DNA of 64,000 nt, taken from Arthonia radiata. Taxonomy: Eukaryota; Ascomycota; Arthoniomycetes; Arthoniales; Arthoniaceae. Shown here one piece after another: positions 4,876 to 21,486 of the stretch; within the stretch, counting starts at the first letter, position 1; every line of letters begins with the position of its first letter. Where the stretch lies: NCBI GenBank assembly GCA_002989075.1, contig PSQN01000015.1:2108001-2172000 (forward strand), in the 5' to 3' direction. The notes under the pieces are model-generated. The model was not told the origin of the DNA, searched no databases, and saw nothing but the letters and a program-made list of their open reading frames with translations. The translations under genes were made by a program, and so were the position numbers.

Positions 4876-5288
4876 CGGGTCAGCCGGCGCGGTGTCAATG
4901 TGGGCGGATGCTGGCGGATTGTTTGCACTTCGTAACAAGTGGTCACGTTCGAGGGGTCCAAGAGTGTCTAGTGAATCCCCACATTCGTTGCTGAAATGGG
5001 ACGCTCTCGACACCTGGCATCATTGCGTGGACGCACAGATCCTGCGGGCGGCTCGCGGTATGGCTCGCCAACACATGAAGGCCGCCCTAGCATTTCTGCT
5101 GGCTTTTCAAAGCGTGACAAAGCGGGCGTTGAATCAATAGAAGGGAAGATAGGGCTGTGGTGGGCGAGAATGTGGGTTGAAGAAGGGATGGGAGTCGGTG
5201 AGCAGGGGATGAAGCGGACGCTAAGGTCTCGAGGCTTAGGGTTTGTACAACCCTGGAATTCGCACGGACATCGACGGCATCAATAACT

Positions 5289-5308
5289 AACCACCGTGTA
5301 GTCTCAGT
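5289..5308. repeat. Left boundary: direct repeat plus inverted repeat
   Basis: AACCACCGTGT (5289-5299) recurs exactly at 21476-21486. The identity extends three bases further left (ACT before it on both sides), giving 14 shared bases. Immediately inside, AGTCTCAGT (5300-5308) is the inverted partner of 21467-21475. After these nine bases the two ends remain loosely similar for about ten more. Confidence 0.6.
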
Positions 5309-5622
5309 AGCCTTAGCCGCGCTAAAAATTTCAAGGGTTACTAACCTATATTAGATATTTAGCTACAAATTTTCTATAAATTACTTATAAAAGGTATATA
5401 AATTCTATATAAATTCTATATAAAGATATATATATACTTAAATAGGTAACTAGCTAATCAATCAGTAGAGTATTTAAGCTTAACTTATAGTAATTTTAAT
5501 AGTTAGCTAAAAATCTATTAGTAGATTACTAATATTTATCTCTTTTAACTTTAATAAGACTAATTTTTAACTATATTATATTAAAAAACTAGTAATATTA
5601 CGTTCTAAAGCTAAAACCTATA

Positions 5623-5687
5623 ATTTAAATATACTTTTTAAAATTTTCTTATATTTAAATATACTTTTTAAAATTTTCTTATATTTA
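5623..5687. repeat. Tandem duplication, 30-bp AT-rich unit
   Basis: A 30-bp unit containing ATACTTTTTAAAATTTTCTT is present twice in perfect tandem (about 5631-5660 and 5661-5690, with AT flanks also shared). It lies in otherwise featureless AT-rich sequence. Confidence 0.7.
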
Positions 5688-6109
5688 ATACTTTTTATAA
5701 ATAAAATATTTATATAACATAAGTTTAACTAATAGTAATATACTTATTAATAGTTACTATTCTTTATATTATTTATTTAAGTAAAGTAAAAAAAAATAGA
5801 TAACGTTATATTTTTACTCTAAATCTAATAAGTTGATTAATACTTAGTTTATCTTTATTTACTATATAGCTCTTATAAAGAAAGAGTTAAGAGATATTAT
5901 ATTAATTATAAAAGATATATATATACTAAGTTTAAACTTCTATTTATTTACTTATAAGTATAAAAGTAATAAATAATTATCTTTATATAATTCTTTAACT
6001 TTTATACTTTCTAATAATACTATTAAGTATAAGTTTACTAAGTATATTACTCTTTATTACTCTAATATTATTATATTTTTATCTTAGTATATCTATCTTC
6101 TATAATATT

Positions 6110-6330
6110 ACGAACGCTAAGCCTAGAACGGCTAAGCGAACCCTCGAGCATCAATACCTACTACTCGCTAGGACGCTAACAGGCACTAGCGTACCTTTGG
6201 CCGACAAGATCTCTTTTACCGATAGCGGCCAAAGCGGGCACGTTGGGCTAGAAAGCCGCGGTTACCTATAAGAACACTAGCAGCTACAGCAACCTTAAAG
6301 GACCTCTCTTGTATCTTAGACTATATAGCT
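6110..6330. other. GC-richer island inside the AT block
   Basis: About 220 bp with near-normal base composition stand in sequence that is otherwise nearly all A and T. No open frame or RNA gene was recognised. It holds an 8-bp inverted repeat, TTTGGCCG at 6196-6203 and CGGCCAAA at 6226-6233, able to form a hairpin with a 22-base loop. A smaller island lies near 6541-6575. Such islands could be unique-copy DNA that escaped RIP, or the least damaged part of an element. Confidence 0.5.
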
Positions 6331-9300
6331 AAACTAATAGTCGACCTTAGAATAGACTTTAGTCTATTAACTTAATATCTGAATATAAGTTTCTTAACTA
6401 TATTTAAGTAACATACTTTATCTTCTATCTACTCTAGTTAAGCTTCTCTTACCCTCTATAATCTATTTTGCCTCTTCTATCTTTTAGTCTCTAGTATACA
6501 AGATACCTACTATTAAGGTTAATAAGCATATAAGATAAGTAAGCCTTAGTTCGGTTCTCCCAGCAACCGGCGTTATATATAACTTTATTAATATCTTTTA
6601 GTATCTATATTACGTCTTACTATCTTAAAATTATTATTTATTTACTTATTAATATTAATTAATTTATAGTAGTTTATAATTTCTTTAATTTTTAAATATT
6701 TTATTAACTTATAGCTTAAAAGCTTATAAAAGAAGATAGTTTATTATCTTTTTATAAAGATAAATAAGAATAAATCTTAGAATCTAATTTTTATTATTTA
6801 TACTATTTATAGAAAGAGTTTTATTATATAGTTTCTATCTCTTTTATGTTATAATAGTATTACTATTATAATTATACTACTAAACTATATTTTAAGATAG
6901 AAAGTAGAAAATAAAGATTAACTTACTAATATAGATTAGATCTATCCTTTTTAATAGTAGTAGCTTATATAATAAGAGCCTCTTTATTTAAATTTATAAT
7001 AAATACTATATGTATATTCTTATATTACTAAAGCTTACTATTGATATCTTCTATTAAATCTTAATTAATTTACTTTCTAAAGTACGTCTAGTCATACTCT
7101 TTATTAATAAGATCTATCTTATTAGCTAATAAAAAAAGAGCCTTTATCTAATATTTATTTAGCTCTAATATTTATATTAATAAATTAGCTATAGTATATC
7201 TATATTTAGGTACTTTATAATATTAAATATAAAATTATATTAATAGATTAAATAGTAGACTAACTTTTAACGCTTTAAGATTATTTAAAGCTTAATTAAT
7301 TATATAACTATTAAGCTTATTATTTACTAAATTTTAACTTAGTAGAAGAGATTATTTATAACGCTATTCTTTATAATATTTAATATTATTAATTTTTCTA
7401 TAAAGAAGCTTTATACATAGTATATCTTAAAAATACTTATATTTATTAACTTTAGATAAAAAGTATATAACTATATTAAGATACTTAATTACTAGCTTCT
7501 TAAGTAAGTATATTTAAATCTTAACTATACTTAAAAGGTTATATAAATATATTACTTTTATATACTTAATAAGAACTAAAACTCCTTAATTTAAATTATT
7601 ATTTATACTAATTTTTTAAGTCTTAAGATTAATTTTAATAAAATTAATTATATAGTATAGTATAGTCTACTATAGAAATAATCTCTATAAATTTTTATTT
7701 AATAATTTAAGTATACTATATACTATCTAGGCGTTAGAAATATAGCTATCTTTTTAGTAAAGAACTAAGTATTTAGAGAGCATACTATATATATTCTAGT
7801 ACTAGCTTAATTCTTTATAGGTTTATTAAGTTAGCTATATCTACTAGCTGCTAAAAATAGACTAGATTCTATAAATATTTATAATAAGTTTAATATAGCG
7901 TTTAACTATAAGATAGCTACTATAAGTAATAAAAAGTTATCTAAGCTTATATAGTATATAAAATTTAACTATACACTCTAGTTATTTATTAATATACAGG
8001 ATAAAAATAAATATTGTTATAAAGATATAATTTAGAAGTATTTTGATAAAAACTATAGCTATAAGGAATTCTAAAAACTATATTACTTATTTAAAATCTA
8101 TTATAATATTTATATACTAGATAATTATTTAGAGTAGTTTACTCTTATTAAGCTATTAAAGGAGCTTAAACTATATTCTCTTTTAGTTTAACTACGCTAA
8201 AATAGTAACTTATAGTATATTTTTAAATATATATATATTTAAAGAAATTAAGTTATTATAACTTAGTTTTAAAAGAGCTTTATAAGGTACTATATATTTA
8301 GCTTAATGCTTCTAAGTAATATACTACTATATATATCTTTTAATAACTTTAATCTTATTTATACTATAAAAGATCTTAAGTCTTATATATAAGTTACCTA
8401 AAAGTATTAGAAAGCTATAGTAATACCCTCTTTAAGGCTTTTTAGTATACTTATATAGTTATATTAAAGAAAGTAAAGTAGCGATAGTAAACTCTCTAAT
8501 AGTAGTAAGTTAATATAAATAAATAAAACTTATAGCTTAGTTTATAGATAAATTTTATATATTAGTAATTAGATTCTATATCTTAATTATAGTAATTAAT
8601 TTAACTTAAACTATTTACTATACTAGTCTCTTTAGTATCACTCTTATTAAAAATACTTATATTTTACTTAATTACCAATCTATCTAATATAGTATTTAGT
8701 TAAGTATTACTAATAACGCTATTAAAATAGTAAAGTAAGGTAAAGAATATTAAGTTACTAAAATAGTAGATTATATCTTATATAAGAATAATACTTAGTA
8801 AGATCTTACTAAATATTATTATAGATCTATAAAAATATAGAGATTCTCTATAGTATAGTAATAATTAAGTTTTATATAGTACTATAGAGTAGAATTGCCT
8901 CTAAATGTTATAGTAAAAAATTAAGAATACTTAGTAGGATTAATAGTATAAATATAAAAGTATTAGAAGCTTAATACTCAATATTCTATATAGCTATATA
9001 GCTCTTTACTAGTTACTCTTTTTATCTATTATTTACTTTAGTACTCTAATAAGATATAAAAGCTATTAATAATAGAAAAAAAATAGAGAGAGATAATAGT
9101 AGTAGATAATAGTAGTAGATAAAAAGTTTAAAGCGTAGGTTAATAAATAGAGACTTAAATAGATATATAGATATTCTTATTATTATTAGAAATCTATTTA
9201 TTTTAATTATAATTTAGCCTTTTATATATATTTAAGACGTAAGTTAATATTTTATAGAGATTTTATAGAATATTTATAGGAGTTTTATAGGTATTTTATA

Positions 9301-11082
9301 GAGAATTTATAGAGAATATACAGTAGGGTTCTTAGCGGTATTTAGGTCTAATTAGTATATTTATATTAATTTTTTAATATCTTACTACATTATTTATATA
9401 AGCTTCTATCTCTTACTCTTATTATTATCTATTCAATAATAGCTATTAATAAGAATAAAGTAAGAATAAAGTATAAATATAGTTTAAATTATACTATATT
9501 TATATATCTAAGCTAACTACGTCTATAATATAGCTAATTCTTATTTATCTATATATTAACGCCTATTAAAGGCTCTATAGTAGTAATATCTTTAGCTATC
9601 TATAGCTTAATTAATTATAAATATCTTTACTTACTATAATATTAGCTTATTTTAGTTTTCTAATCTATAATAAGGCTAGTACTTATGTCTAATATTATAT
9701 AAAGATATAAGCTATTTATTAAGCTAAATAAATAGAAAAAAAGAAAATTATATATTATTATAATAATGTAAGAGTATAACACTAAAGTAGTTAAAAAAAG
9801 AAGAATTTAAAATAAAGCATAACTATACTTATTAATACTAGCTACTATTTAAGTATATATTAGCGCCTTTTAGCTAGTAATATTAAAGTCTCTAGTTTAG
9901 CCTTAAAGATAGCGTTAATTGGCTTATTAATAGATAGCTAATTACTAATTAAAGGTAGGTCTTACTACTAGTAACTAATATTAGTTTAGATCTCTATATA
10001 TCTAGTCTTATTATATTTCTTTTTATACTTATTTTAAATATTAAATACTAGTCTCTATACTATAGTATACTTATATAGTTTAGTTTAAGTAATTAATAGT
10101 TGTACGTTAGAGAAGATATAATAGTATATAAAGTATATAAAATTAGTACTATACTAGAATTAGTATAAAATAGTATAGTAAGGATTATAATTATACTTCT
10201 TATAGTTAATAAACTAGTTCTTTCTTAGATAAATAACTAAAACTACTAGATTTATTTTACTATAAATAACTTACTTAATATACTATATATATATATATAT
10301 ATTAAGAACAAGCGCTAGCTACTTTATAATATAAAAAGGAAATTTCATTAGTAAAGATAGTCTATTTATAATAAAGACTCTAGTAGATAGCTATATAGAA
10401 GATATAGACAGTAAATTAGCTAAACTAGTTATTTAGCTTAAATTTAGTAATAGTAAGTAACTAAACTACTATATAATTAAAACTTATTTAAAATAAATAT
10501 ACTGCTACTATTATTATTATCTACTATCTTTATATCTTTACTCTTAGTACTTAACTCTCTCTCTTTCTTCTAAATATTTATATTTAGCTTTAAGAAGAAA
10601 AATAAATATTTTAACTAGATTTTATTTAATAGAAGAAGAGAGTAAAGTAACTAAAACTCTATTAGAGTAATAAACTTAATATACTATAGATATTATAGTA
10701 GAAGCTTAGTTTTAAAATTAAATAGAGAGAGATTATTATTATTAGAGCTCTATAGAAAAGAAATAAATATATACTACTTAGTAAGTATATAGTAGTAAGA
10801 AGATATTTATTAATAAACAATTAAATATATAAAGGCTTAGTAATAATATTAATAAGAAAGAAAAAAAGAAAGAAAGAAGAGTAGAAGTTAAGAAAATATA
10901 AAGTAATGTTTCTAAAAATAATCTAAATAAAAAGCTCTATATAGTTATTATATTAACTATACTTTATAAGTTTTTTATAAAGTCTCTATAAATTCTTTAT
11001 AAAAGAGCTATAAAGAAGGTATAAAGCTTATATTATATAGACTTATTATTAGACTTTAAACTTTTAGCTTAAGTAAATTAAG
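6331..11082. other. Saturated AT-rich sequence, no recognisable feature
   Basis: About 4.7 kb of TA-rich sequence with stop codons in all frames. Short A/T tandem patterns occur, for example near 9240-9320 where a TTTATAG-type word recurs six or so times. No protein motif of a known transposon family could be recognised. I take this as the heavily mutated body of older repeats. Confidence 0.6.
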
Positions 11083-11285
11083 TAGCGTCTTTAAGATCTA
11101 TAGTAATTAAGAAATTACTAAAATATAATCTATAGCGTCTTAAGTCTATAGTAATTAAAAAATTACTAGAATATAATTAGTAGCGTCTTAAGTCTATAGT
11201 AATAAGAAAATTACTAAAATATTATCTATAGCGTTTTTAAAACCTATAGTAACTAGAAAATTACTAGAATATTATTTATAGTTTA
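11083..11285. repeat. Tandem array, four units of 48-50 bp
   Basis: TAGCGTCT (last copy TAGCGTTT) starts each unit at 11083, 11133, 11181 and 11229, followed by CTATAGTAA and AAATTACTA..ATAT. Unit spacing is 50, 48 and 48 bp. Differences are mostly C/T and G/A transitions. Confidence 0.75.
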
Positions 11286-11650
11286 ATATCTATAGAGAAA
11301 TATTTATTTTATATCTTTTTCTTCTTCTTTTCTCTCTTCTTCTCTCTATTTACTATTAGATTTAATAGTATTAAGTATACTAATATATAGTAAAACTCTA
11401 TATAGCTATAACTCTTTTAAAAAAATATAAACTATTACTAATAATACTTTAAAGTTAGTATTAACTAAGCTTAAAAAGAAATATAAAAGAAGATACTATA
11501 ATCTTCTCTATCTTTAGTAATAATAATAAGAAATTTAAAAGTTTAATTAAGAGCCTAAACTTATTAAAGAAGCTAAATAAGTAGAATAAAAAGAATAAAA
11601 ATACTAAAATATATAGCGGCGGTAGCAATAGTAAGAAAATACTAAAGAAC

Positions 11651-12158
11651 TGTTAAAAAAGGTGCAGGAAAGAAGAAGAATACTACTATAAAGAGTAGAA
11701 AGGCGAGACTAGCTTAAGACTAATACAATACTTAGGCTTAATACAGGTACAATACTTAGTAGCAAGAAGAAGCTGTTGTTATATTGTCTGTCTTATTAGC
11801 TAGAATCCTCTAGAGAGATCCTAGCTTATATATCTAAGTTTAGCGGTCCGTACAGGACTTACTAGATATCTATTCTTTTAATAGGGGCTAGATAACCTGT
11901 AACTTACTGTATAAGACAGTAATTCTGTTTATCTAAAACTATTAGTCTTTAAGTCTATTCTATGTTGTCTTAGACTACAGGCCAGCTGTCTAGAACGGGT
12001 CGTACAATGCTTCTTTTTGTCCTAGGCCCGGGCTACTAGGCCCGATCCTTTAGATAAAAGGCTTGTTCTATTTTAGACCGAGACAGCTGGTAGGACTTGT
12101 TCGATACTCTAGGTCCCTAGGGGTTCCAGCTAACCAGCTAGTTGGTTAATTTCTAACA
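11651..12158. mobile_element. Solo LTR of a Ty1/Copia element (fossil)
   Basis: A 508-bp sequence beginning TGTTA and ending TAACA, so its termini are inverted repeats typical of an LTR. It is flanked by a 5-bp target duplication AGAAC (11646-11650 and 12159-12163). It matches the LTRs of the Copia element at 12662-18048 over its whole length. There is no internal region next to it, so it is the remnant left by LTR-LTR recombination. It carries an internal inverted repeat, CCAGCTGTCT and AGACAGCTGG. It interrupts a short tandem array (12164-12345), which confirms the insertion point. Confidence 0.85.
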
Positions 12159-12163
12159 AGAAC

Positions 12164-12345
12164 TATTTTAATAATTATAGTATTATAAGAGAGTAAGAAT
12201 TAGGATAGTAGTAAAGAAATACTAAAGAACTATCTTAATAATTATAGTATTATAAGAGAATAAGGATAAGAATAGCGATAGTAAAGAGAATACTAAAGAA
12301 CTATCTTAATAATTATAGTATTATAAGAGTAAAAGTAGTAGTAAT
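12164..12345. repeat. Tandem array interrupted by the solo LTR
   Basis: Units of about 65-75 bp containing AATTATAGTATTATAAGAG and ending AATACTAAAGAAC. One partial unit lies left of the solo LTR (about 11620-11650) and about three lie right of it. Removing the LTR and one copy of the 5-bp duplication makes the array continuous. Confidence 0.7.
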
Positions 12346-12565
12346 ACTAAATATAACTATATTTTTAACTATTTATACTATATTATTTTATATATCTATA
12401 TCTTTTTAACTATTAACTCTAGTACTAAGTATAACTATATTCTTAACTATCTATACTACGTTATACTATATATTTATATCTTTTTAGCTATTAACTCTAG
12501 TACTGAGTATAACTATACTCTTATCTATCTATACTATATTATATTATATACTTATACCTCTTTAG
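12346..12565. repeat. Tandem array, three units of about 73 bp
   Basis: Three diverged units each contain ATAACTATA followed by CTATCTATACTA or a variant, then ACTATTAACTCTAGTACT. They occupy the space between the solo-LTR array and the left LTR of the Copia element. Confidence 0.65.
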
Positions 12566-12661
12566 CTACTAACTTTAATATAAATCTCTTTACTATTACT
12601 ACTACTATTACTACTATTACTATCTTCTATCTCTATAGCTCTTATAAAGTTATTTCTATTT

Positions 12662-13155
12662 TGTTAAAAAAGGTGCAGGGAAGAAGAAGAATACTACTAT
12701 AAAGAGTAGAAAGACGAGATTAGCTTAAGACTGGTGCAATACTTAGGCTTAATACAGATACAATACTTAGTAGCAAGGAGAAGCTGTTGTTATATTGTCT
12801 GTCTTATTAGCTAGAATCCTTTAAAGGGATCCTAGCTTATATATCTAAGTCTAGCGGCCTGTATAGAACTTACTAGATATCTGTTCTTTTGATAGAGGCC
12901 AGATAACCCGTAACTTACTATATAAGACGGTAATTCTGTCTATCTAAAACTGTTAGTCTTTAAGTCTATTCTGTATTGTCTTAGACTACGGGCCAGCTGT
13001 CTAGAACGGGTCGTACAATGCTCTTTTTTGTCCTAGACCCGATCCTTTAGGTAAAAGGCTTGTTCTATTCTAGGCCGAGACAGCTGGTAGGACCTGTTCA
13101 ATACTCCGGGCCTCTGAGGGTTTCGGCTAACCAGCTAGTTGGTTAATTTTCAATA
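12662..13155 (-). repeat. 3' LTR of the Copia fossil
   Basis: 494 bp starting TGTTA, and the same length as the other LTR. By eye the two LTRs differ at about 7 percent of positions, almost all transitions, so divergence reflects RIP as well as age. The purine-rich tract expected upstream of a 3' LTR lies at about 13156-13170 when read on the minus strand. Confidence 0.85.
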
Positions 13156-16100
13156 CACCCTCTTAATCAACTAGTTGTTTTAGCCGGATTGTAAGCTAAT
13201 TTAAGTTCTAAACGTTAGTATTTTAGCCAAGTCGATCGGTTTTGTTAAACTGTCTGCTAATTGTTCCTTTATAGAAACGTATTTGAGCTCTGTTTAACCT
13301 GTCTGAACGTTTTCTCTAACATAGTAATACTGTATATCAATATGCTTAGATTTAGCTCGGAAGGTAGGGTTTTTTGTAAGTTCTTTTGTCGAATTGCTGT
13401 CGGTAAGTAACAGTTTTACCGGCAAAACTAGGGTCTCCGGTCTAATTTAACCGGCTTGCCCGGACAAATATATGCTTGCCTGGTGCGTTAGAGCCCGCTA
13501 AGTCTTTTTATCCGCAGACTTTTTAAAAGTACCCGCTAAAACGGTAGTAATCGAATTTTCTTCAAAAATCCTAGATAGTTTGGTAGCAATTAATCGGATA
13601 AATAACTGTTTCTTTATAGCTTCTTTAAGAGCTATATATTCGGCCTTACAAGAGCTTAAGACGACTATTTTTTATAGCTTTAAATTCTAGCTAAGGGCTC
13701 CGTTCCTAAGTAGAAAGATATAGCCGGTAGTCGATCTCCTAGTACCGAGGTCCCCCCCCCCAATCTACGTTACAATAGCCGGTTATACCGTCTATTAAGG
13801 GAGATTTGTAGTAAAGGCTAAGGTTAGAAGTTTTATCTAAGTAAGCCTAAAGGCTACTTAAAACTCTCTAGTGCTCCTCGCTAGGATTTAATATATATCG
13901 GGCTAGTAGGCTAGTTGTAAAGGCAATATCGGGTCTTATCTTTGTTATTAGATACAAAATCGATCCAATTTGTTGCTGATAATTAGAAATATTGGCACTA
14001 CTAGCTTAATTAGGATTCGGTGCCAATTTTAAGCCGACAGGTTGCAGTATTTTTCTGGGCATTCGGCCGTTTTTCTTCGAGTATTTAGTTAAAATTTTAG
14101 CTAAATAAGTCGACTAGTTTAGGTAAATCTTTTTCGCCGGGCGATCTCAAGTAATTTTAATTTCTAGAAACTTACTAACGTCTTCTAAGTTCTTAACTAT
14201 AAGAGTCTTATTTAGTTTCTAGTAGATTTTAGAGATTGTTTCAATAGAATCGAATACAGCTAATATATTGTCTACGTAGATGATTAAAATTGCCTACTTT
14301 CTAGTTCTTTAAATATAAACCGACTAATTGGATACTAGGGGTTTAAAACCTATGTCCCTTAGTAATTCTTAAAGATAGGCTTTCTACTATCGGCCGGCCT
14401 ATTTTAGACCGTAAAGGGCCTTCTTTATTCAATAAACTTTATTAGTTCCGTTAGATAGGTTAGTTAGTTACTCGATATAGACAATCTTATCTAACTTTGC
14501 GTTAGAATAAGCTAATTTTACGTCCCATTGCTTTATTTTCTAGTCTTTCTCTGCTGCTAAGGCTAGTATAAGCCGGTAGATAATTAAATTTACTATATTT
14601 ATAAAGGTCTCTATAAAATTGAGGTCGGGTCTTTACTGGCAGCCCTTAGCTATCCAGCGGGCTTTAAAAATTAGCTCGCTCTTCGGAGGGTACTTAATCT
14701 TTAATACCCAGCGCCCTTTTAGCGCCTTTCTACTCGGCGGCAGCTCGGTTAATATTTAAGTTTCTTAGTTAGCTAGCTCTTTGAGCTCCGACTATATTGC
14801 GTCTAGCTAAGAAGGCCAATCCTTAGATATCCTTATTTCTTTTAAGTTATTAGGCTCTTTAGTAACTGCAACTAAGGCCTGTTTGGCGTATTGTTCTAGA
14901 TTATTGTAGAACTCGTTAAACTAATTTTTGTCGGCGTTTTTGTATATAAAATCTATTTTCTGAGCACAATCGATGTCTACTCGGCCAGGGTCTTCGGTAC
15001 TTCTATAATCTAACTCGGTAGGAAGGTTAGACTTGTCTAGAGCTCTAGTTTAGTATAGTTCTTATTTAAATTCGTCTGCTAGTTGTTAAGATATAGAGAA
15101 GGTATACTATTTCTTATACAGAGAACTTTCTCCTTTATTAAAAGGTACCTCTCTATTATCTTAAGATTTAGCGGTCGAATTTAGCTTATTTTTGAACTCG
15201 ACTTTTAGTTATTTTTTAAGCTCTTTAGAAATACTTTTGGTTAATTAATTAACCGTAGATCTCTGTAGGTCCTAAACAAATTTTTCTTCTTAGACGTAGA
15301 CGTCTCTCTCTCAGTAAACCTTCCGGTTATTGAGGTCTAAGAGCTTATATTGGTTCGATCTGTAGCCTATTAGAATATAAGTAGTTGCTCTAGCGTCTAG
15401 CTTTTTTAGTTTAGATTCTTTAAGATAAGTAACTGAGCCTTAGATTTTAATAGTACTAACATTCGGTTTTTTGCCGTATTTTGCTTCGTACGGAATAATA
15501 AACCCCGGCAATTCGGTATAAGGGGTCCTGTTGTAAATATAGATAGCTGCTTTTAGCGCTTTACTCTAATATATCTAAGGTAGCTCGGCGGTATAAAGCA
15601 TTGCTCAAACTTTACTAATAATTGTTCGGTTAAAGCGTTCGGCTCGTCTATTTTACTAAGAGATATACGATACAGATGTCGTTAAAATAGCTTCTTTTTG
15701 TTCTAGAAGCTGTTTTATCCGGCCTTCCCGGTATTCTTTTGTGTTGTTTAAGTATAGTCTTTTAAAAGAATACTCGAACTACGTTTCTTTTTAAGTAATA
15801 TAGATAAATAGTGCGTCGAAAACCTAATCTTTAGACTATAGTACCTTAGTAGTCGTATACCGGGTTTTATTGTCTATAAAGCTAGTAAATAATTAACCTT
15901 TAGAAGGGGTTTACGGTACAATTAGCCCGTAAATATCTGAGTAGACTTTTTTTAAATAATTAACCGATTTGTCTAGAGTTTTTTAGCTAACTTTAGCCGT
16001 TGCCTTTGCTTCGAAGCAAATTTAGTAATTATCTTTCAATTTGTCCGAATAATCTATTTCTAGGGCAACCTTTTTAAGCTGTTTTAAGGCGTTTTCGCCT

Positions 16101-17531
16101 ATATATCCTATCCGTTGATACTAAAGGTCAGTTTTCGAAGAAATAGTGTAGAAAGATCGGACTGTATTAATAGTCTAAGCTTCTATTACTATTAAGCCGT
16201 TAATATACCGCCCCTCGGTAGTTAGTTGTTCGGTTCAATTAACTTTTGGCTTGTTTTAGTTAAGAGTTACCTTACCTTCTCTCTTTCTAAGCTTATCGAA
16301 GCTTAGAAGGTTAATTCTAAATTCCTTAACAAACAAAACTTTGTTTAGAACAATTATTTTGTTCTTAAAGAACAGTTTTGCTTTACCTGTTTAGAAGGCT
16401 TAGATTAACTTCTTCCCTCTTCAATAAATAATTCGGTTAGTTGGCCGGATATCCGTTAGAAGGTCAATATTCGAGCAAATATAGCTTATTGAGCCTATAT
16501 CGAGGATCTAAGAATTAGTAGAGTAATTAACTCTGTCTAGTAATACTGTAAAGTATTGTTTTTCTTGTAGATTGGAACTATGTACAGAAAATATTGAAAA
16601 ATCGGTGTTTTTGGAGCTTTTGTTAGAATTTAGCCGGAGATTTGGGTATTTTTTCTAACAAGTTACCGGTTTATGCCTCTTTTTGTTGTAAAAGGGGCAT
16701 TTTTCTTAGTTTTTTCTTAGAGATTTTAATTGTTCTCCGGTCTTTTGCGTCGATTTGTTGTCTATTGCAGTAAAAACCTTTTCTGCTGGAGTACTACCGT
16801 AAATTCGGCGAGACTCGTTTATAAGTTAACTAAATAAGTCCTATAGACTTATATCGCTAGTCGTTTGCCGATAGCTTTGGCTAATAATAGCTACCGTGTG
16901 CTCGTATTCGGGGGTCAGATTGTAAAGAACGTAGGCAGCTACCACCTTGTTGGGTAGTGCTAGTCCTTAGATTGCTAAATCGTCCGTTAATTGTCTTATT
17001 TTAGCAAGGTAAAGCTTAAGGTTTTTTACCTTACTAAGTATAGTGCTAAAGAGCTCCTTGCAAATTAGAAACTTGAAACTAAAAATTTTCGATTCGTATA
17101 ACCTTTCTAGGCTATTTTAAAGCTCTAGAGAGTTATAGATCCCCTTTATTTAAATAAGGGGACCGTCCTCTAAAGTTAGTTAAATAAGGGCTGCTGCTCT
17201 TATCAACTATTTCTGGCGGCTAGCTTCGGTAATATCTCTAGCTAAATAGCCAGAAAAGGGGATTATAACGTTACCGTAGCCCTTTTCAGTTAAAAGTGCC
17301 TCTATTCGAATCGACTAAATGTCCTAATTAGTCGAGCCCCTAAGTTTAGGAATCTTATAAGAGGAGTCTATAGCCAAATATATAGTCAGAGATTTCCGAA
17401 AAAAAAGAAAATTCTGTTCTAATAGTTAAATTGGGCTAAAAATTTAGAGTCGATTAGTAATAGAATCGTTCGGAGGTGCCGATAGGTATCGTAGGGGAAA
17501 TATTTTCTAAAAAGGAAATTCGAAAGGAATT

Positions 17532-17554
17532 GGTGCTAACTCGGGCTCATAACC
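17532..17554 (-). other. Primer-binding site, tRNA-half type
   Basis: The 23 bases next to the 5' LTR include GGGCTCATAACC (17543-17554). On the plus strand this reads like the anticodon arm of an initiator tRNA-Met with CAT in the loop. Known Copia-type elements can prime from an internal tRNA-Met fragment, and this site fits that arrangement better than a 3'-CCA primer. The assignment rests on pattern recognition. Confidence 0.55.
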
Positions 17555-18048
17555 TGTTAAAAAAGGTATAGAGAAGAAGAAGAATACTACTATAAAGAGT
17601 AGAAAGACGAGACTAGCTTAAGACTAGTACAATACTTAGACTTAATATAGGTACAATACTTAGTAGCAAGGAGAAGCTATTGTTATATTGTCTGTCTTAT
17701 TAGCTAGAATGCTCTAGAGGAATCTTAGCTTATATATCTAAGTTTAGCGGCCCGTACAGAACTTACTAGATATCTGTTCTTTTGATAGAGGCCAGATAAC
17801 CCGTAACTTACTATATAAGACAGTAATTTCGTCTATCTAAAACTATTAGTCTCTAAGTCTATTCTATATTGTTTTAGACTACGGGCCAGCTATCTAGAAC
17901 GGGTCGTACAATGCTCTTTTTTATCCTAGACCCGATCCTTTAGGTAAAAGGCTTGTTCTATTCTAGGCCGAGACAGCTGGTAGGACCTATCCAATACTCC
18001 GGGCCCCTAGGGGTTCCGGCTAACCAGCTAGTTGGTTAATTTCTAATA
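17555..18048 (-). repeat. 5' LTR of the Copia fossil
   Basis: 494 bp starting TGTTA. It sits next to the primer-binding site, which makes it the 5' LTR in the minus orientation. It would have carried the element's promoter. Confidence 0.85.
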
Positions 18049-18053
18049 TATTT

Positions 18054-21000
18054 ACTTATAGTTCTATCTTTATAGCTCTTATAAAGCTATCTCTATTTAC
18101 TTATAGTTCTACCTTTATAGCTCTTATAAAGCTATCTCTATCTACTTATACTTCTATATCTTAGTTATTAATTTTAAACTTAGTTAGTAATAACTTACTA
18201 ATACTATTAAAGTTCTATAGCTAATATTCTATTTATATTAAGTAATTTAATAAAGAATATCTTTAGGTCTATTTTTTAAAATTTTCTATAAATTTTCTAT
18301 AAATTCTCTATAAATCTTCTATAAGATCTTTATAAGTTCTCTATAAATATATCTATTATTTATTATATTTATTAGCTATATTAGTAAGTTAATAAGTTTT
18401 ATATCTATCTTTATAAATATCTATTTTTCTTCTTATAATATAATAATATTCCCTTCTTTTAAACTATAGCTCTTAATATTAGTAGACTAATTAAAAGTCT
18501 TTTTATGAGATAATAAAACACTCTATAGTTCTCTTCTCTTATAATAAACTTTTATATTAAGTTTCTTAATTTCTTTACCTTATTAAAAGATTTTTTCAAG
18601 CTTTATAGTAAATATATTAATTAAAGATAACTTTAACTTATAACCTATTTAGAAGATAATTAACCTAGTAGTCTTATTAACTAGTAAATAAATATTCTTT
18701 ATTATAAGAAAACTAGTATACTTATTTAATAGCTACTTACTAAATATTTCTTAAATAAGCTTATAAATCTTACTTTAAAACTTACTTATAAGAATATAAA
18801 CGTTGAATAAATATTTAAAACTAAATATTAATATTTATCTTACTTTTAACTATTTTTTTAAGCTAGCTATTTAGATACTTAAAAAAGAAATTAATCTTAT
18901 ACTAGCTATTATTCTTTTTTATTTAATTAATAAGTATATTTAATAGAATTATTCTTAATAGTTTACTTAACGCTATAAAGATGTATAAAAGTTTATATAA
19001 ACTAAGTATTGGTATATTTATACTAGCTAGAGCCTTTAAAATAAGCTATCAAAATATATATTAAGTACTTAAAAAGTTTAATATCACTATACTTAATTAT
19101 ATACTTAAGAATCTTATAGTTGCTTACTACTTAAATTATTTATTAATAATAGTAATATAGCTAATTCTTGACTATACTAGTTTACTTTTTAGTATACTAC
19201 TACTTTATCTATTTATTTAGATTACTACGCTTTAAAGCTACTTTCTTTAGCTATTTCTTCTTTTTAATTCTTTAAGTCTTCTTTTTATAAAATTACTACT
19301 TAACTTACTTAAGTATGAGAGTCTTAATATAATTATGTATCTTAATATTATTTATTAAAGTTTACTTAGAGATACTTAATAGTTTTTAAGTATAGATATC
19401 TTTATAGATCTTTTATATTAGCTTTAAAAAATATATAGTTATTATATATATAATATATTTTAAATCTTATTAATATTAAAGCTCTATACCTCTATTTTAT
19501 AGTAGAATATTACTAATATATAAATATTAAAGCTATTTAATAAAAAATATTTAGTATAATAGAACTTAGTATTATTTTAAAGTAATATTTATTACTACTT
19601 TTAAAAATTAAAGTAATACTATAGTAATAATAGCTCTTTACTTATATTTATACTACTAAATTACTTTTAAATAAAGAAAAGAGTTAATATTTAAAAATAA
19701 AAAGAAGGAATATAAAGAATAATCTACTTTTATTTATTAATTATAAGAATCTATATTATTAACCAAGTCTTTTTAAGCTAATTAAAGTTACTTAATAGTA
19801 AGTTAATCTTTATAAATAAGCTATAGTTAGCTTTAAAAGACTTTAATATTTTAAAAGTCTTATATATCTAAACTAAGCTAATTTTTATAGAATCTCTTTA
19901 TTACTTTATATACTCTATTAACTAAGCTTTTATTAATAAATATTAGCTTTAAATTATAGTAATTAGTTTTATAAGATATTAATTTATTAATAGTAAGTAT
20001 TTATAAAGTAGATAATATATTTTTATTATAAATAGTAAGTATCTTAAAGTATATATTTAAGATTATATTAAATATTTAAAAAAACTAGATATCTTTAGTA
20101 TATTAGTTTTCTCTAAAAAGAATTTACTTTATATTTTTAAATAGAAGTTAAATAATAGAATTAAGTATTAACTACTTTAATTTTCTATTTAAAATATTAC
20201 TATAAATTACCTTTTTAGTAGTTACTAAAGTAAGCTTATCTTTCTAATTTAAATAAGTCTGTAAAACATCTTTATAGTATTAAAAATTACTATATATAAT
20301 AATAAGTAATTTCTCTTTATTAAGTTAAAAAAAGAATTTTATATAACTCTTTTATTTACTTATAAAGCTAAATTATAAGTATTTAGTAACTTTTATATAG
20401 TTTTAAGCTAAATAGCGTATTAAAATATTAGTATTAAGTACTAATAAAATAGAAATAGATACTAAATAAGTATACTAATTTATTATATTACTCTTACATA
20501 AATATTCTTAATAGTACTATAACTATAAGTATTATATATAGTAGATAATAATTAAAAGTAGTAAAAGTAGTCTCTTATAGTATATTACTAGCTTACTAGA
20601 GTTAAAGTAGTTATTAAAGAAAATAATATAGAAATAGTACTCTTACTTTAAAACTAAGTTAAATTAAATATAATAATTATATAAATATAATAAAAACATT
20701 TTAGCTTACTTTACTATATAACTTACTAAAGTATAATTAGCCTTTATATAGCTCTTTTAAATACTTTAGCTCTTTATATACTTAAGATATAAGAACAGTA
20801 TTAAATATTATATTTCTATTAACTAAAGGCTCAGAATAATTAATATATATCTTATTAATAGTAGAACTTTAATTTAAAGTATATATAAAAGACTTTTAGT
20901 AGATACTTGATATTTAATATCTTTTTAAAGTCTTATTTAATAGCTCTTTAAGTAGAGTCTTAATAAACTTATATAGCAACTAAATAGTACTATTAATAAC

Positions 21001-21440
21001 TTTTAATATTAATATTAATTAACCTATATAAATAATATAAAATAGCTTCAATAATTCTTTTATATACTATTACTTTTAAATATACTTTAGTATAATTAGT
21101 ATAATAGTATATTAAAACTAGCTTATTAAGATTATAAAGCTTATTAAAAGTTTTATAAAAATCTACTAATAGTATATAATAGAGCGCTAATCTTAAGATT
21201 AAATATACTTACTAAAATACTAAAGTTTACTATAGTAGTAAAGAATAAAGATTTTTAAAGTTACTACTAAACATAAAATATATAACTACTAAAAAGCTAT
21301 AAGTTAGGCTTAAACTTTAAATATAAGATAGTAAAAATTTCTATTTTAAATATTATATAACTATAAATATCCTACGAAACCCTTATAAAACCCCTACGAA
21401 GAGGGTATAATAACCCTACGCACGCTAAATTTTACTACCC
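18054..21440. other. Saturated AT-rich sequence right of the Copia fossil
   Basis: About 3.4 kb of TA-rich sequence without open frames. A 50-bp unit (CTTATAGTTCTA..TATAGCTCTTATAAAGCTATCTCTA type) is repeated two or three times at about 18050-18170, and the same word also occurs left of the Copia insertion near 12630-12660. This shows the Copia element jumped into that repeat. Composition returns to normal over about 21370-21440. Confidence 0.6.
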
Positions 21441-21466
21441 TGCCGAGACGTTCAGGGTCTGAGTCA

Positions 21467-21486
21467 ACTGAGACTAACCACCGTGT
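21467..21486. repeat. Right boundary: inverted repeat plus direct repeat
   Basis: ACTGAGACT (21467-21475) is the reverse complement of 5300-5308 and is followed by AACCACCGTGT (21476-21486), identical to 5289-5299. A chance 14-bp match at exactly the two composition boundaries is very unlikely, so the pair probably marks an insertion. Confidence 0.6.

What the first reader, a model, noticed from the sequence alone, without database searches (positions are those of the whole stretch)
5289..21486. The entire 16-kb AT-rich block looks like one bounded insertion
RIP-eroded blocks normally have ragged edges. Here the two composition boundaries carry a 14-bp exact direct repeat (ACTAACCACCGTGT, 5286-5299 and 21473-21486). 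Allowing the outermost nine bases inside to be an inverted repeat (AGTCTCAGT and ACTGAGACT), this resolves into an 11-bp target duplication plus a 9-bp terminal inverted repeat. Long duplications of 8-11 bp are known for Mutator-like DNA transposons, but 16 kb is large; even without the Copia fossil and solo LTR it is about 10 kb. It may be an unknown large element or a composite.
Basis: partly seen in the sequence, partly recalled or inferred. Interest (0 to 1): 0.75.

Follow-up and report, generated by a model that had tools for sequence, protein, structure and literature searches.

The report
Dead DNA transposon, multi-copy family
The 16-kb AT-rich block is one dead copy of a cut-and-paste DNA transposon found elsewhere in the same genome, and its remains point to a poorly known protein family (DUF6589) as the likely enzyme that moved it.

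Summary
Confirmed and refined. The block at 5299-21476 is one bounded insertion whose two termini recur in the genome. All 8 copies paired by position, the window included, plus one on C2 recognised by its flanks, carry an 8-9 bp flanking duplication (6 exact, 3 with one mismatch); 0 of 72 wrong pairings do. The correct parse is a 9-bp duplication (ACCACCGTG) plus a 10-bp inverted repeat (TAGTCTCAGT), not 11+9. The block is a 9.8-kb core enlarged by a full LTR element, a solo LTR and a 474-bp insert; sister copies span 191 bp to 62 kb. No Starship captain was found in the paired copies and no MULE domain in the genome. The core carries an eroded DUF6589 gene whose match starts 1.37 kb from the right end, reading inward; it was seen in 2 of 3 copies spanning that place. 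A second family (6.39 kb) has termini of the same layout, 9-bp duplications, paralogous empty sites (10 of 10 unoccupied copies examined) and DUF6589 starting 1.36 kb inside. DUF6589 is therefore the likely transposase; its fold and chemistry are untested. The term DUF6589 is in no paper of the held library.

The parts
5290..5298 (.). Left target-site duplication ACCACCGTG (9 bp)
   Evidence: Identical to 21477-21485; boundary fixed by comparing 9 copies
5299..5308 (+). Left 10-bp terminal inverted repeat TAGTCTCAGT; an imperfect repeat continues to about 20 bp with a second CTCAG-like box
5299..21476 (+). Whole inserted element, family A copy on C12, 16,178 bp; orientation arbitrary
   Evidence: Termini and TSD; core shared with other copies
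5346..5433 (+). Eroded subterminal array of short repeats of about 11 bp; a GC-rich form (CCTACGAA...) is seen in the 191-bp sister copy
6105..6578 (.). 474-bp nested insert with inverted-repeat-like ends; related sequence elsewhere in the genome
   Evidence: Missing at the same place in the C9:1731075 and C2 copies; relatives in L053 and L047/L059 and in L078
6579..11650 (.). Left part of the core, no recognisable domain
   Evidence: Shared with other copies; no Pfam match above cut-off in three copies read through in six frames
11651..12158 (.). Solo LTR, TSD AGAAC
12159..12661 (.). Middle part of the core between the LTR insertions; not scanned against Pfam
   Evidence: Parts align to the C9:1731075 copy
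12662..18048 (.).
   Evidence: LTR copies at 12662-13149 and 17554-18046; TSD
18864..20156 (-). Eroded DUF6589 gene region, the candidate transposase (limits approximate)
   Evidence: PF20231 match at 19737-20111, E 8.7e-9, 35 bits, cut-off 27; C9:1731075 copy 26.3 bits, just under the cut-off; weak similarity to the family D protein near 19005-19100, E 0.27
21371..21476 (-). GC-retaining right terminus, about 105 bp, with TTCGTAGG-type repeats
21467..21476 (-). Right 10-bp terminal inverted repeat ACTGAGACTA
21477..21485 (.). Right target-site duplication ACCACCGTG (9 bp)

Best explanation
The block is a dead copy of a cut-and-paste DNA transposon of about 9.8 kb that inserted into GC-normal host DNA and duplicated 9 bp of target. 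Repeat-induced point mutation (RIP, inferred) then stripped its GC, and a full LTR element, a solo LTR and a 474-bp insert landed in it. It belongs to a group of at least three related families in this genome: A (this one), B (about 0.9 kb) and D (6.39 kb). They share termini of the form TAG(T/C)CTCAG with a second CTCAG box about ten bases further in, and 8-9 bp duplications. The enzyme is most likely the DUF6589 protein, encoded inside one end and reading inward. Shown: bounded element, TIR, TSD, copies, nested inserts, a DUF6589 relic in A, and DUF6589 in D at the matching place. Inferred: that DUF6589 is the transposase and that it works by DDE-type strand transfer with cuts staggered by 8-9 bp.
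For: Termini recur. 9 of 9 pairs have 8-9 bp duplications with at most one mismatch (one of the nine, on C2, was recognised by its flanks and is not an independent test); 0 of 72 wrong pairings do. Core pieces shared by 5 of 8 other paired copies; right half colinear in C9:1731075. DUF6589 in the window copy, E 8.7e-9, and in the C9:1731075 copy, E 3.8e-6; 0 of 24 read-through frames of left-half and C6 stretches gave it. Family D: four elements of 6387-6395 bp with both ends; TSDs 2 exact at 9 bp, 1 with one mismatch, 1 with three; 12 wrong pairings have 5 or more mismatches. 10 of 10 unoccupied paralogous sites (12 of 40 listed copies fetched, 2 of them occupied) read through with one copy of the 9-mer. 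9 of 13 DUF6589 matches, from 8 elements, lie 1.36-2.42 kb inside a D left end in the same orientation.
Against: DUF6589 was seen in 2 of 3 A copies that span its start: the C9:1005080 copy aligns to 19480-20345 and gave no match, and the C2 copy is interrupted there. The genome-wide DUF6589 search did not list the A relics at all, the window's included. A profile built from family D relics does not detect the A relic: its best single-stretch scores fell on left-half stretches (6.5 and 6.0 bits), above the window (0.5) and the C9:1731075 right half (0.4). Direct A-to-D protein similarity is weak (E 0.27). No usable fold (pLDDT 45), no PDB relative, no intact DUF6589 protein. 4 of 13 DUF6589 matches have no D left end within 3 kb. 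The empty site was shown for D, not for the window's own site.
Confidence: 0.8

Rival explanations
1. A Mutator-like (MULE) element, with a transposase too eroded to see.
For: TSDs of 8-9 bp fit; a held paper gives 4-10 bp for IS256 and MuDR (PMC10045372, passages).
Against: PF10551 had no match and no candidate in the genome search (the same search rang in 3 of 14 control genomes); no MULE domain in the core frames read, although an eroded DUF6589 and eroded captains were detectable.
Confidence: 0.07
2. A hAT-type element with 8-bp duplications, DUF6589 being a passenger.
For: 8-bp duplications fit 5 of 9 A pairs best and the B copy. One of five hAT dimerisation matches (C6:431944) lies in an AT-rich block that starts with a B-type terminus, in the orientation that DUF6589 has in A.
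Against: No hAT domain in the A or D frames read and no hAT match inside paired A or the four full D copies; 4 of 9 A pairs and 3 of 4 D copies fit 9 bp and not 8; no right end with a matching duplication was found for the C6 block within 5.7 kb (best candidate 3 mismatches), and it holds nested pieces.
Confidence: 0.08
3. A Starship (giant captain-bearing element).
For: Large AT-rich blocks (up to 62 kb); captains exist elsewhere in this genome.
Against: None of the 18 DUF3435 matches listed lies in a paired A copy (a capped list, but eroded captains with 15 or more stops were found); targets differ and 8-9 bp are duplicated at each.
Confidence: 0.02
4. Another, unseen enzyme coded in the unrecognised 5-kb left half of the core moves the element, DUF6589 being accessory.
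For: The left half (6579-11650) is shared among copies and has no known domain.
Against: Family D stretches show no DNA similarity to the window core apart from the 474-bp insert, yet have termini of the same layout and DUF6589.
Confidence: 0.1

Closest known systems
Mutator-like elements (MuDR/MULE)
   Same: TIR, duplication of 8-9 bp, small internally deleted derivatives
   Different: No MULE domain found in the genome; short TIR of 10-20 bp
hAT superfamily (for example ToxhAT, 14.3 kb with 74-bp TIRs; PMC6737239, passages)
   Same: Large fungal TIR element; hAT usually duplicates 8 bp (PMC12730594, passages)
   Different: 9-bp duplications in several copies; no hAT domain in the A or D frames read
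KDZ (Kyakuja-Dileera-Zisupton) transposons
   Same: Fungal TIR elements; Zisupton duplicates 8 bp (PMC12730594, passages)
   Different: No KDZ or other named transposase family above cut-off in the core frames read
Styx (Zymoseptoria, 7.9 kb, 36-bp TIR, transposase linked to IS3EU; PMC10853768, passages)
   Same: Multi-kb fungal DNA transposon with solo ends and rearrangements near copies
   Different: 6-bp duplications and a different transposase
Starship elements
   Same: Large AT-rich blocks bounded by short repeats (general knowledge)
   Different: No captain found in the paired copies
Pfam PF20231 (DUF6589)
   Same: The gene relic in the window matches this family above its cut-off; so do 13 other places in the genome
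   Different: Pfam names no function; the term DUF6589 is in 0 papers of the held library

Membership tests
TIR (class II) DNA transposon | Terminal inverted repeats shared by multiple copies | tested here: met
TIR (class II) DNA transposon | Target duplication of near-fixed length, differing in sequence between copies | tested here: met
   9 of 9 pairs at 8-9 bp with at most one mismatch (8 of them paired by position alone), 0 of 72 controls
TIR (class II) DNA transposon | Empty site with one target copy | tested here: inconclusive
   Met for sister family D, 10 of 10 unoccupied paralogues fetched; for the window site the joined flanks match only themselves and no related strain is held
TIR (class II) DNA transposon | DDE/D transposase | not testable with these tools
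   DUF6589 relic found, but fold and catalytic residues not established
Mutator-like element | MULE transposase (PF10551) | tested here: not met
   0 matches in the genome search
Mutator-like element | 8-11 bp duplication | tested here: met
   8-9 bp
hAT | hAT dimerisation domain (PF05699) inside the element | tested here: not met
   Five matches in the genome, none in paired A or full D copies; one in a block beside a B-type end
Starship | DUF3435 captain inside the element | tested here: not met
   18 matches listed, none in paired A copies
KDZ and other transposases held in Pfam | Transposase domain of that family | tested here: inconclusive
   None above cut-off in the core frames read, but heavy erosion limits sensitivity and 5299-6104 and 12159-12661 were not scanned

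The most novel reading that the evidence does not exclude
DUF6589 is the transposase of an unrecognised superfamily of TIR transposons, defined by TAG(T/C)CTCAG-type termini with a second CTCAG box about one helical turn inward, 8-9 bp target duplications and a gene reading inward from one end; DUF6589 genes in other fungi would then be transposon genes or domesticated descendants.
Probability: 0.45. Interest if true: 0.75.

Novelty: new variant of a known kind. Interest (0 to 1): 0.58.

Why it matters
It turns an unexplained AT-rich block into a defined mobile element with sister copies, and gives a testable function, transposase, to a protein domain that has none in Pfam and is not named in the held library. 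It also shows that a block can grow far beyond its core by nested insertion while its short, GC-retaining ends and target duplication survive heavy point mutation, so that such blocks can be delimited exactly.

Tried and rejected
Rejected: an 11-bp duplication plus a 9-bp TIR (T and A lie inside the element in 9 of 9 copies); a Starship; a MULE. Led nowhere: protein database searches with DUF6589 relics gave no relative at E 0.001 (2902 candidates, 7994 candidates; that the collection is poor in fungal proteins is my inference); viral contigs none; PDB none; NCBIfam none for two frames; the fold of the window relic had pLDDT 45 and was not used. An HMM made from family D relics did not detect the A relic and scored control stretches higher (one search printed no rows). 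Six-frame comparison of A and D without composition correction gave weak matches in many frame pairs, right and wrong ones alike. The share of substitutions in an intact CpA/TpG context between copies was low (7 of 83, 38 of 448 and 25 of 378 in three core alignments), so that count does not demonstrate RIP.

Papers: DUF6589, 0 papers; PF20231, 4 papers, none opened, unrelated by title; the 9-bp termini as text, 518 papers, ten listed, unrelated by title. Listings for giant or new-superfamily fungal transposons show 10 to 15 of 47 to 161,180 papers; titles and abstract starts showed no description of these elements. The AcademH paper is not held, so its duplication length could not be compared.

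Dropped from the pairing: of 18 left-terminus matches 9 were paired, and of 15 right-terminus matches the 9 with up to two mismatches were paired, the 6 with three were not. Reversed control patterns gave 4 and 5 chance matches in those two searches, 0. Dating by LTR divergence was not attempted because such mutation distorts it.
Full report
Observation. The 14-bp direct repeat is real and occurs only at these two places in the window, and GC drops sharply at both sides. The likeliest GC change points are 5323 and 21371, just inside the proposed ends, so the outermost 24 bp on the left and 105 bp on the right keep their GC. The source is unnamed; that it is a fungus is my inference from the DUF3435 and DUF6589 families and the RIP-like erosion.

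Sister copies. The genome holding the window can be searched (33.5 Mb, 16 contigs; the window is C12:2108001-2172000). The left and right termini recur. Eight pairs were made from position and orientation: the window; C4:1110545-1132490 (21.9 kb); C4:1559106-1600266 (41 kb, minus); C7:846006-846196 (191 bp, minus); C9:1005080-1053663 (48.6 kb, minus); C9:1731075-1764834 (33.8 kb); C10:757181-791959 (34.8 kb); C10:930400-992385 (62 kb). A ninth, with ends on C2 at 206305 and 264019, was recognised because its two flanks match, so its duplication is no independent test. 9 of the 18 left-terminus matches are thereby paired; others, for example C7:400195 and C5:18111, have no found partner.

Target duplications. 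In 9 of 9 pairs the base before AGTCTCAG is T and the base after CTGAGACT is A, so the TIR is TAGTCTCAGT (10 bp). Outside it the flanks match over 8 or 9 bp with at most one mismatch: window ACCACCGTG, C9 CTTATCGAC, C10 GCGTGAAAG and C2 GCCACGGGC (9 exact); C4 CGCTACAG and C9 GCCAGGAA (8 exact); C4 GGTCAAGG/GGTCAAAG, C7 GAACGCGC/GAACGCGT and C10 ATATAACT/ATGTAACT (7 of 8). Among 72 wrong pairings scored in the same way none had fewer than two mismatches and one had two. On C2 the two ends face in a way that suggests an inversion with one breakpoint inside the element, or an assembly error.

Core and nested inserts. The window copy carries a solo LTR (11651-12158, TSD AGAAC), a full LTR element (12662-18048, TSD TATTT) and a 474-bp insert (6105-6578). 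Without them 9809 bp remain. A 5-kb query from the core (6580-11600) finds pieces in five of the eight other paired copies and in the unpaired C7:400214 copy. Order and orientation are kept in C9:1731075, C4:1559106 and the left part of C2, and partly changed in C9:1005080 and C10:930400; no piece was listed in C4:1110545, C10:757181 or the 191-bp copy (a capped list), although their ends match over tens to hundreds of bases. The right half is colinear in C9:1731075. In three core alignments of 500 bases or more, 77-83% of substitutions are transitions; CpA and TpG are nearly absent from the core. This fits RIP, but few of the differences sit in an intact CpA/TpG context, so RIP remains an inference. 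The large sizes of sister blocks are at least in part a product of nesting; most of their interiors were not read.

What it encodes. Read through in six frames (6600-11590 and 18160-21475; 5299-6104 and 12159-12661 were not scanned), the core shows one Pfam family above its cut-off: DUF6589 (PF20231) on the minus strand at 19737-20111, E 8.7e-9, profile positions 18-135. The same family appears at the same place in the C9:1731075 copy, E 3.8e-6, 0.7 bits under the cut-off (minus strand only). It was not seen in the C9:1005080 copy, which aligns to 19480-20345, nor in the C2 copy, which is interrupted there. No DUF6589 match appeared in 24 frames of left-half stretches of three copies and of the C6 block. 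The genome-wide search with PF20231 listed 13 matches and none of the A relics, so its sensitivity for such eroded copies is limited.

A second family with the same plan. Most of those 13 matches belong to a 6.39-kb repeat, family D. Four copies were read to both ends: C14:1117554, C16:851063, C16:1517303 (minus) and C5:10003 (minus), 6387-6395 bp. The least eroded ones begin TAGCCTCAGTCCACTCAGGCC and end, read inward, TAGTCTCAGCCCGCTCAGACCC, a layout like that of family A. Their flanks fit a 9-bp duplication: TCGACCCGG and ACTGAATAA (exact), GAGGGGACC/GAGGAGACC (one mismatch), GGTCCTCTC/GATTCCCTC (three mismatches, all transitions); 12 wrong pairings have 5 to 8 mismatches. The D left end occurs 21 times with up to three mismatches against 0 for the reversed control. 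9 of the 13 DUF6589 matches, from 8 elements, lie 1.36-2.42 kb inside a D left end in the same orientation; of the other four, one (C15:1017578) has a left end 8.7 kb away and three on C2 have none listed. The domain match begins 1.36 kb from the end in D (profile positions 55-58, two copies; a third, profile position 61, at 1.37 kb) and 1.37 kb in A (profile position 18), reading inward in both.

Empty sites. Two D copies (C16:851063 and C5) sit at the same place, in opposite orientation, in a repeat with at least 40 copies. Twelve of the 40 listed copies were fetched; two are the occupied ones. The other ten read straight through the site with a single copy of the 9-mer, aligning without gaps over 389-391 bp to the joined flanks. 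This shows insertion with a 9-bp duplication for family D directly. For the window copy the joined flanks match only themselves, so no paralogous empty site was found, and no related strain is held.

Related short elements. A family B copy (C14:153314) is about 0.9 kb, with a TIR of the same type and the duplication TCCAAACC, 8 bp exact. The 191-bp C7 copy is a minimal version of family A and keeps GC-rich subterminal repeats that are eroded in the window.

Rivals. Starship captains (DUF3435) give 18 listed matches, none in the paired A copies. MULE gives none in the genome. hAT gives five, none in paired A or full D copies, but one lies in an AT-rich block beside a B-type terminus on C6, for which no right end was found; I cannot exclude that some elements with this terminus are hAT-like. 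DUF6589 could also be a passenger, but its presence at about the same place in two families with little other similarity argues against that.

Mechanism. Most likely the DUF6589 protein binds the paired CTCAG boxes and perhaps the subterminal repeats, cuts the element out at TAG...CTA and inserts it at cuts staggered by 8 or 9 bp. The boxes and repeats are seen; the binding, the cutting and the DDE chemistry are inferred. Tests of fold failed here.

Literature. DUF6589 is named in none of the held papers. I read passages, not whole texts, of PMC10045372, PMC10799480, PMC12730594, PMC10853768 and PMC6737239, plus the outline of PMC12730594. Repbase and most subscription journals were not available, so such elements may have been named elsewhere.

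Noticed in passing
L060 and L063 (C16:851063 and C5:3617), with L061-L071: Two family D elements lie at the identical position of a high-copy repeat in opposite orientations, which hints at a target hot spot.
   Followed up: partly
C2:206305 and C2:264019 (L007, L016): The two ends of one family A copy, with matching 9-bp flanks, face in a way that suggests an inversion with a breakpoint inside the element, or an assembly error.
   Followed up: no
window 9246-9315, 10962-11014, 18271-18348: Internal arrays of about 11-bp repeats like those at the element ends; they might mark older nested ends or extra binding sites.
   Followed up: no
C11:171400-172764 and C13:1790152-1791205: DUF3435 (Starship captain) matches with one or no stops, unlike most of the captain matches in this genome.
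   Followed up: no
C6:431944-432135 (L076): An eroded hAT dimerisation domain in an AT-rich block that begins with a B-type terminus at C6:434762.
   Followed up: partly
L078 (C9:1006300-1008600): A chromodomain match (E 1.2e-8) on the minus strand beside the family A piece, perhaps from a nested chromodomain retrotransposon.
   Followed up: no
window 6105-6578: 474-bp insert with inverted-repeat-like ends; related sequence also lies near DUF6589 repeats on C15 and C2 and in the C9:1005080 copy.
   Followed up: partly
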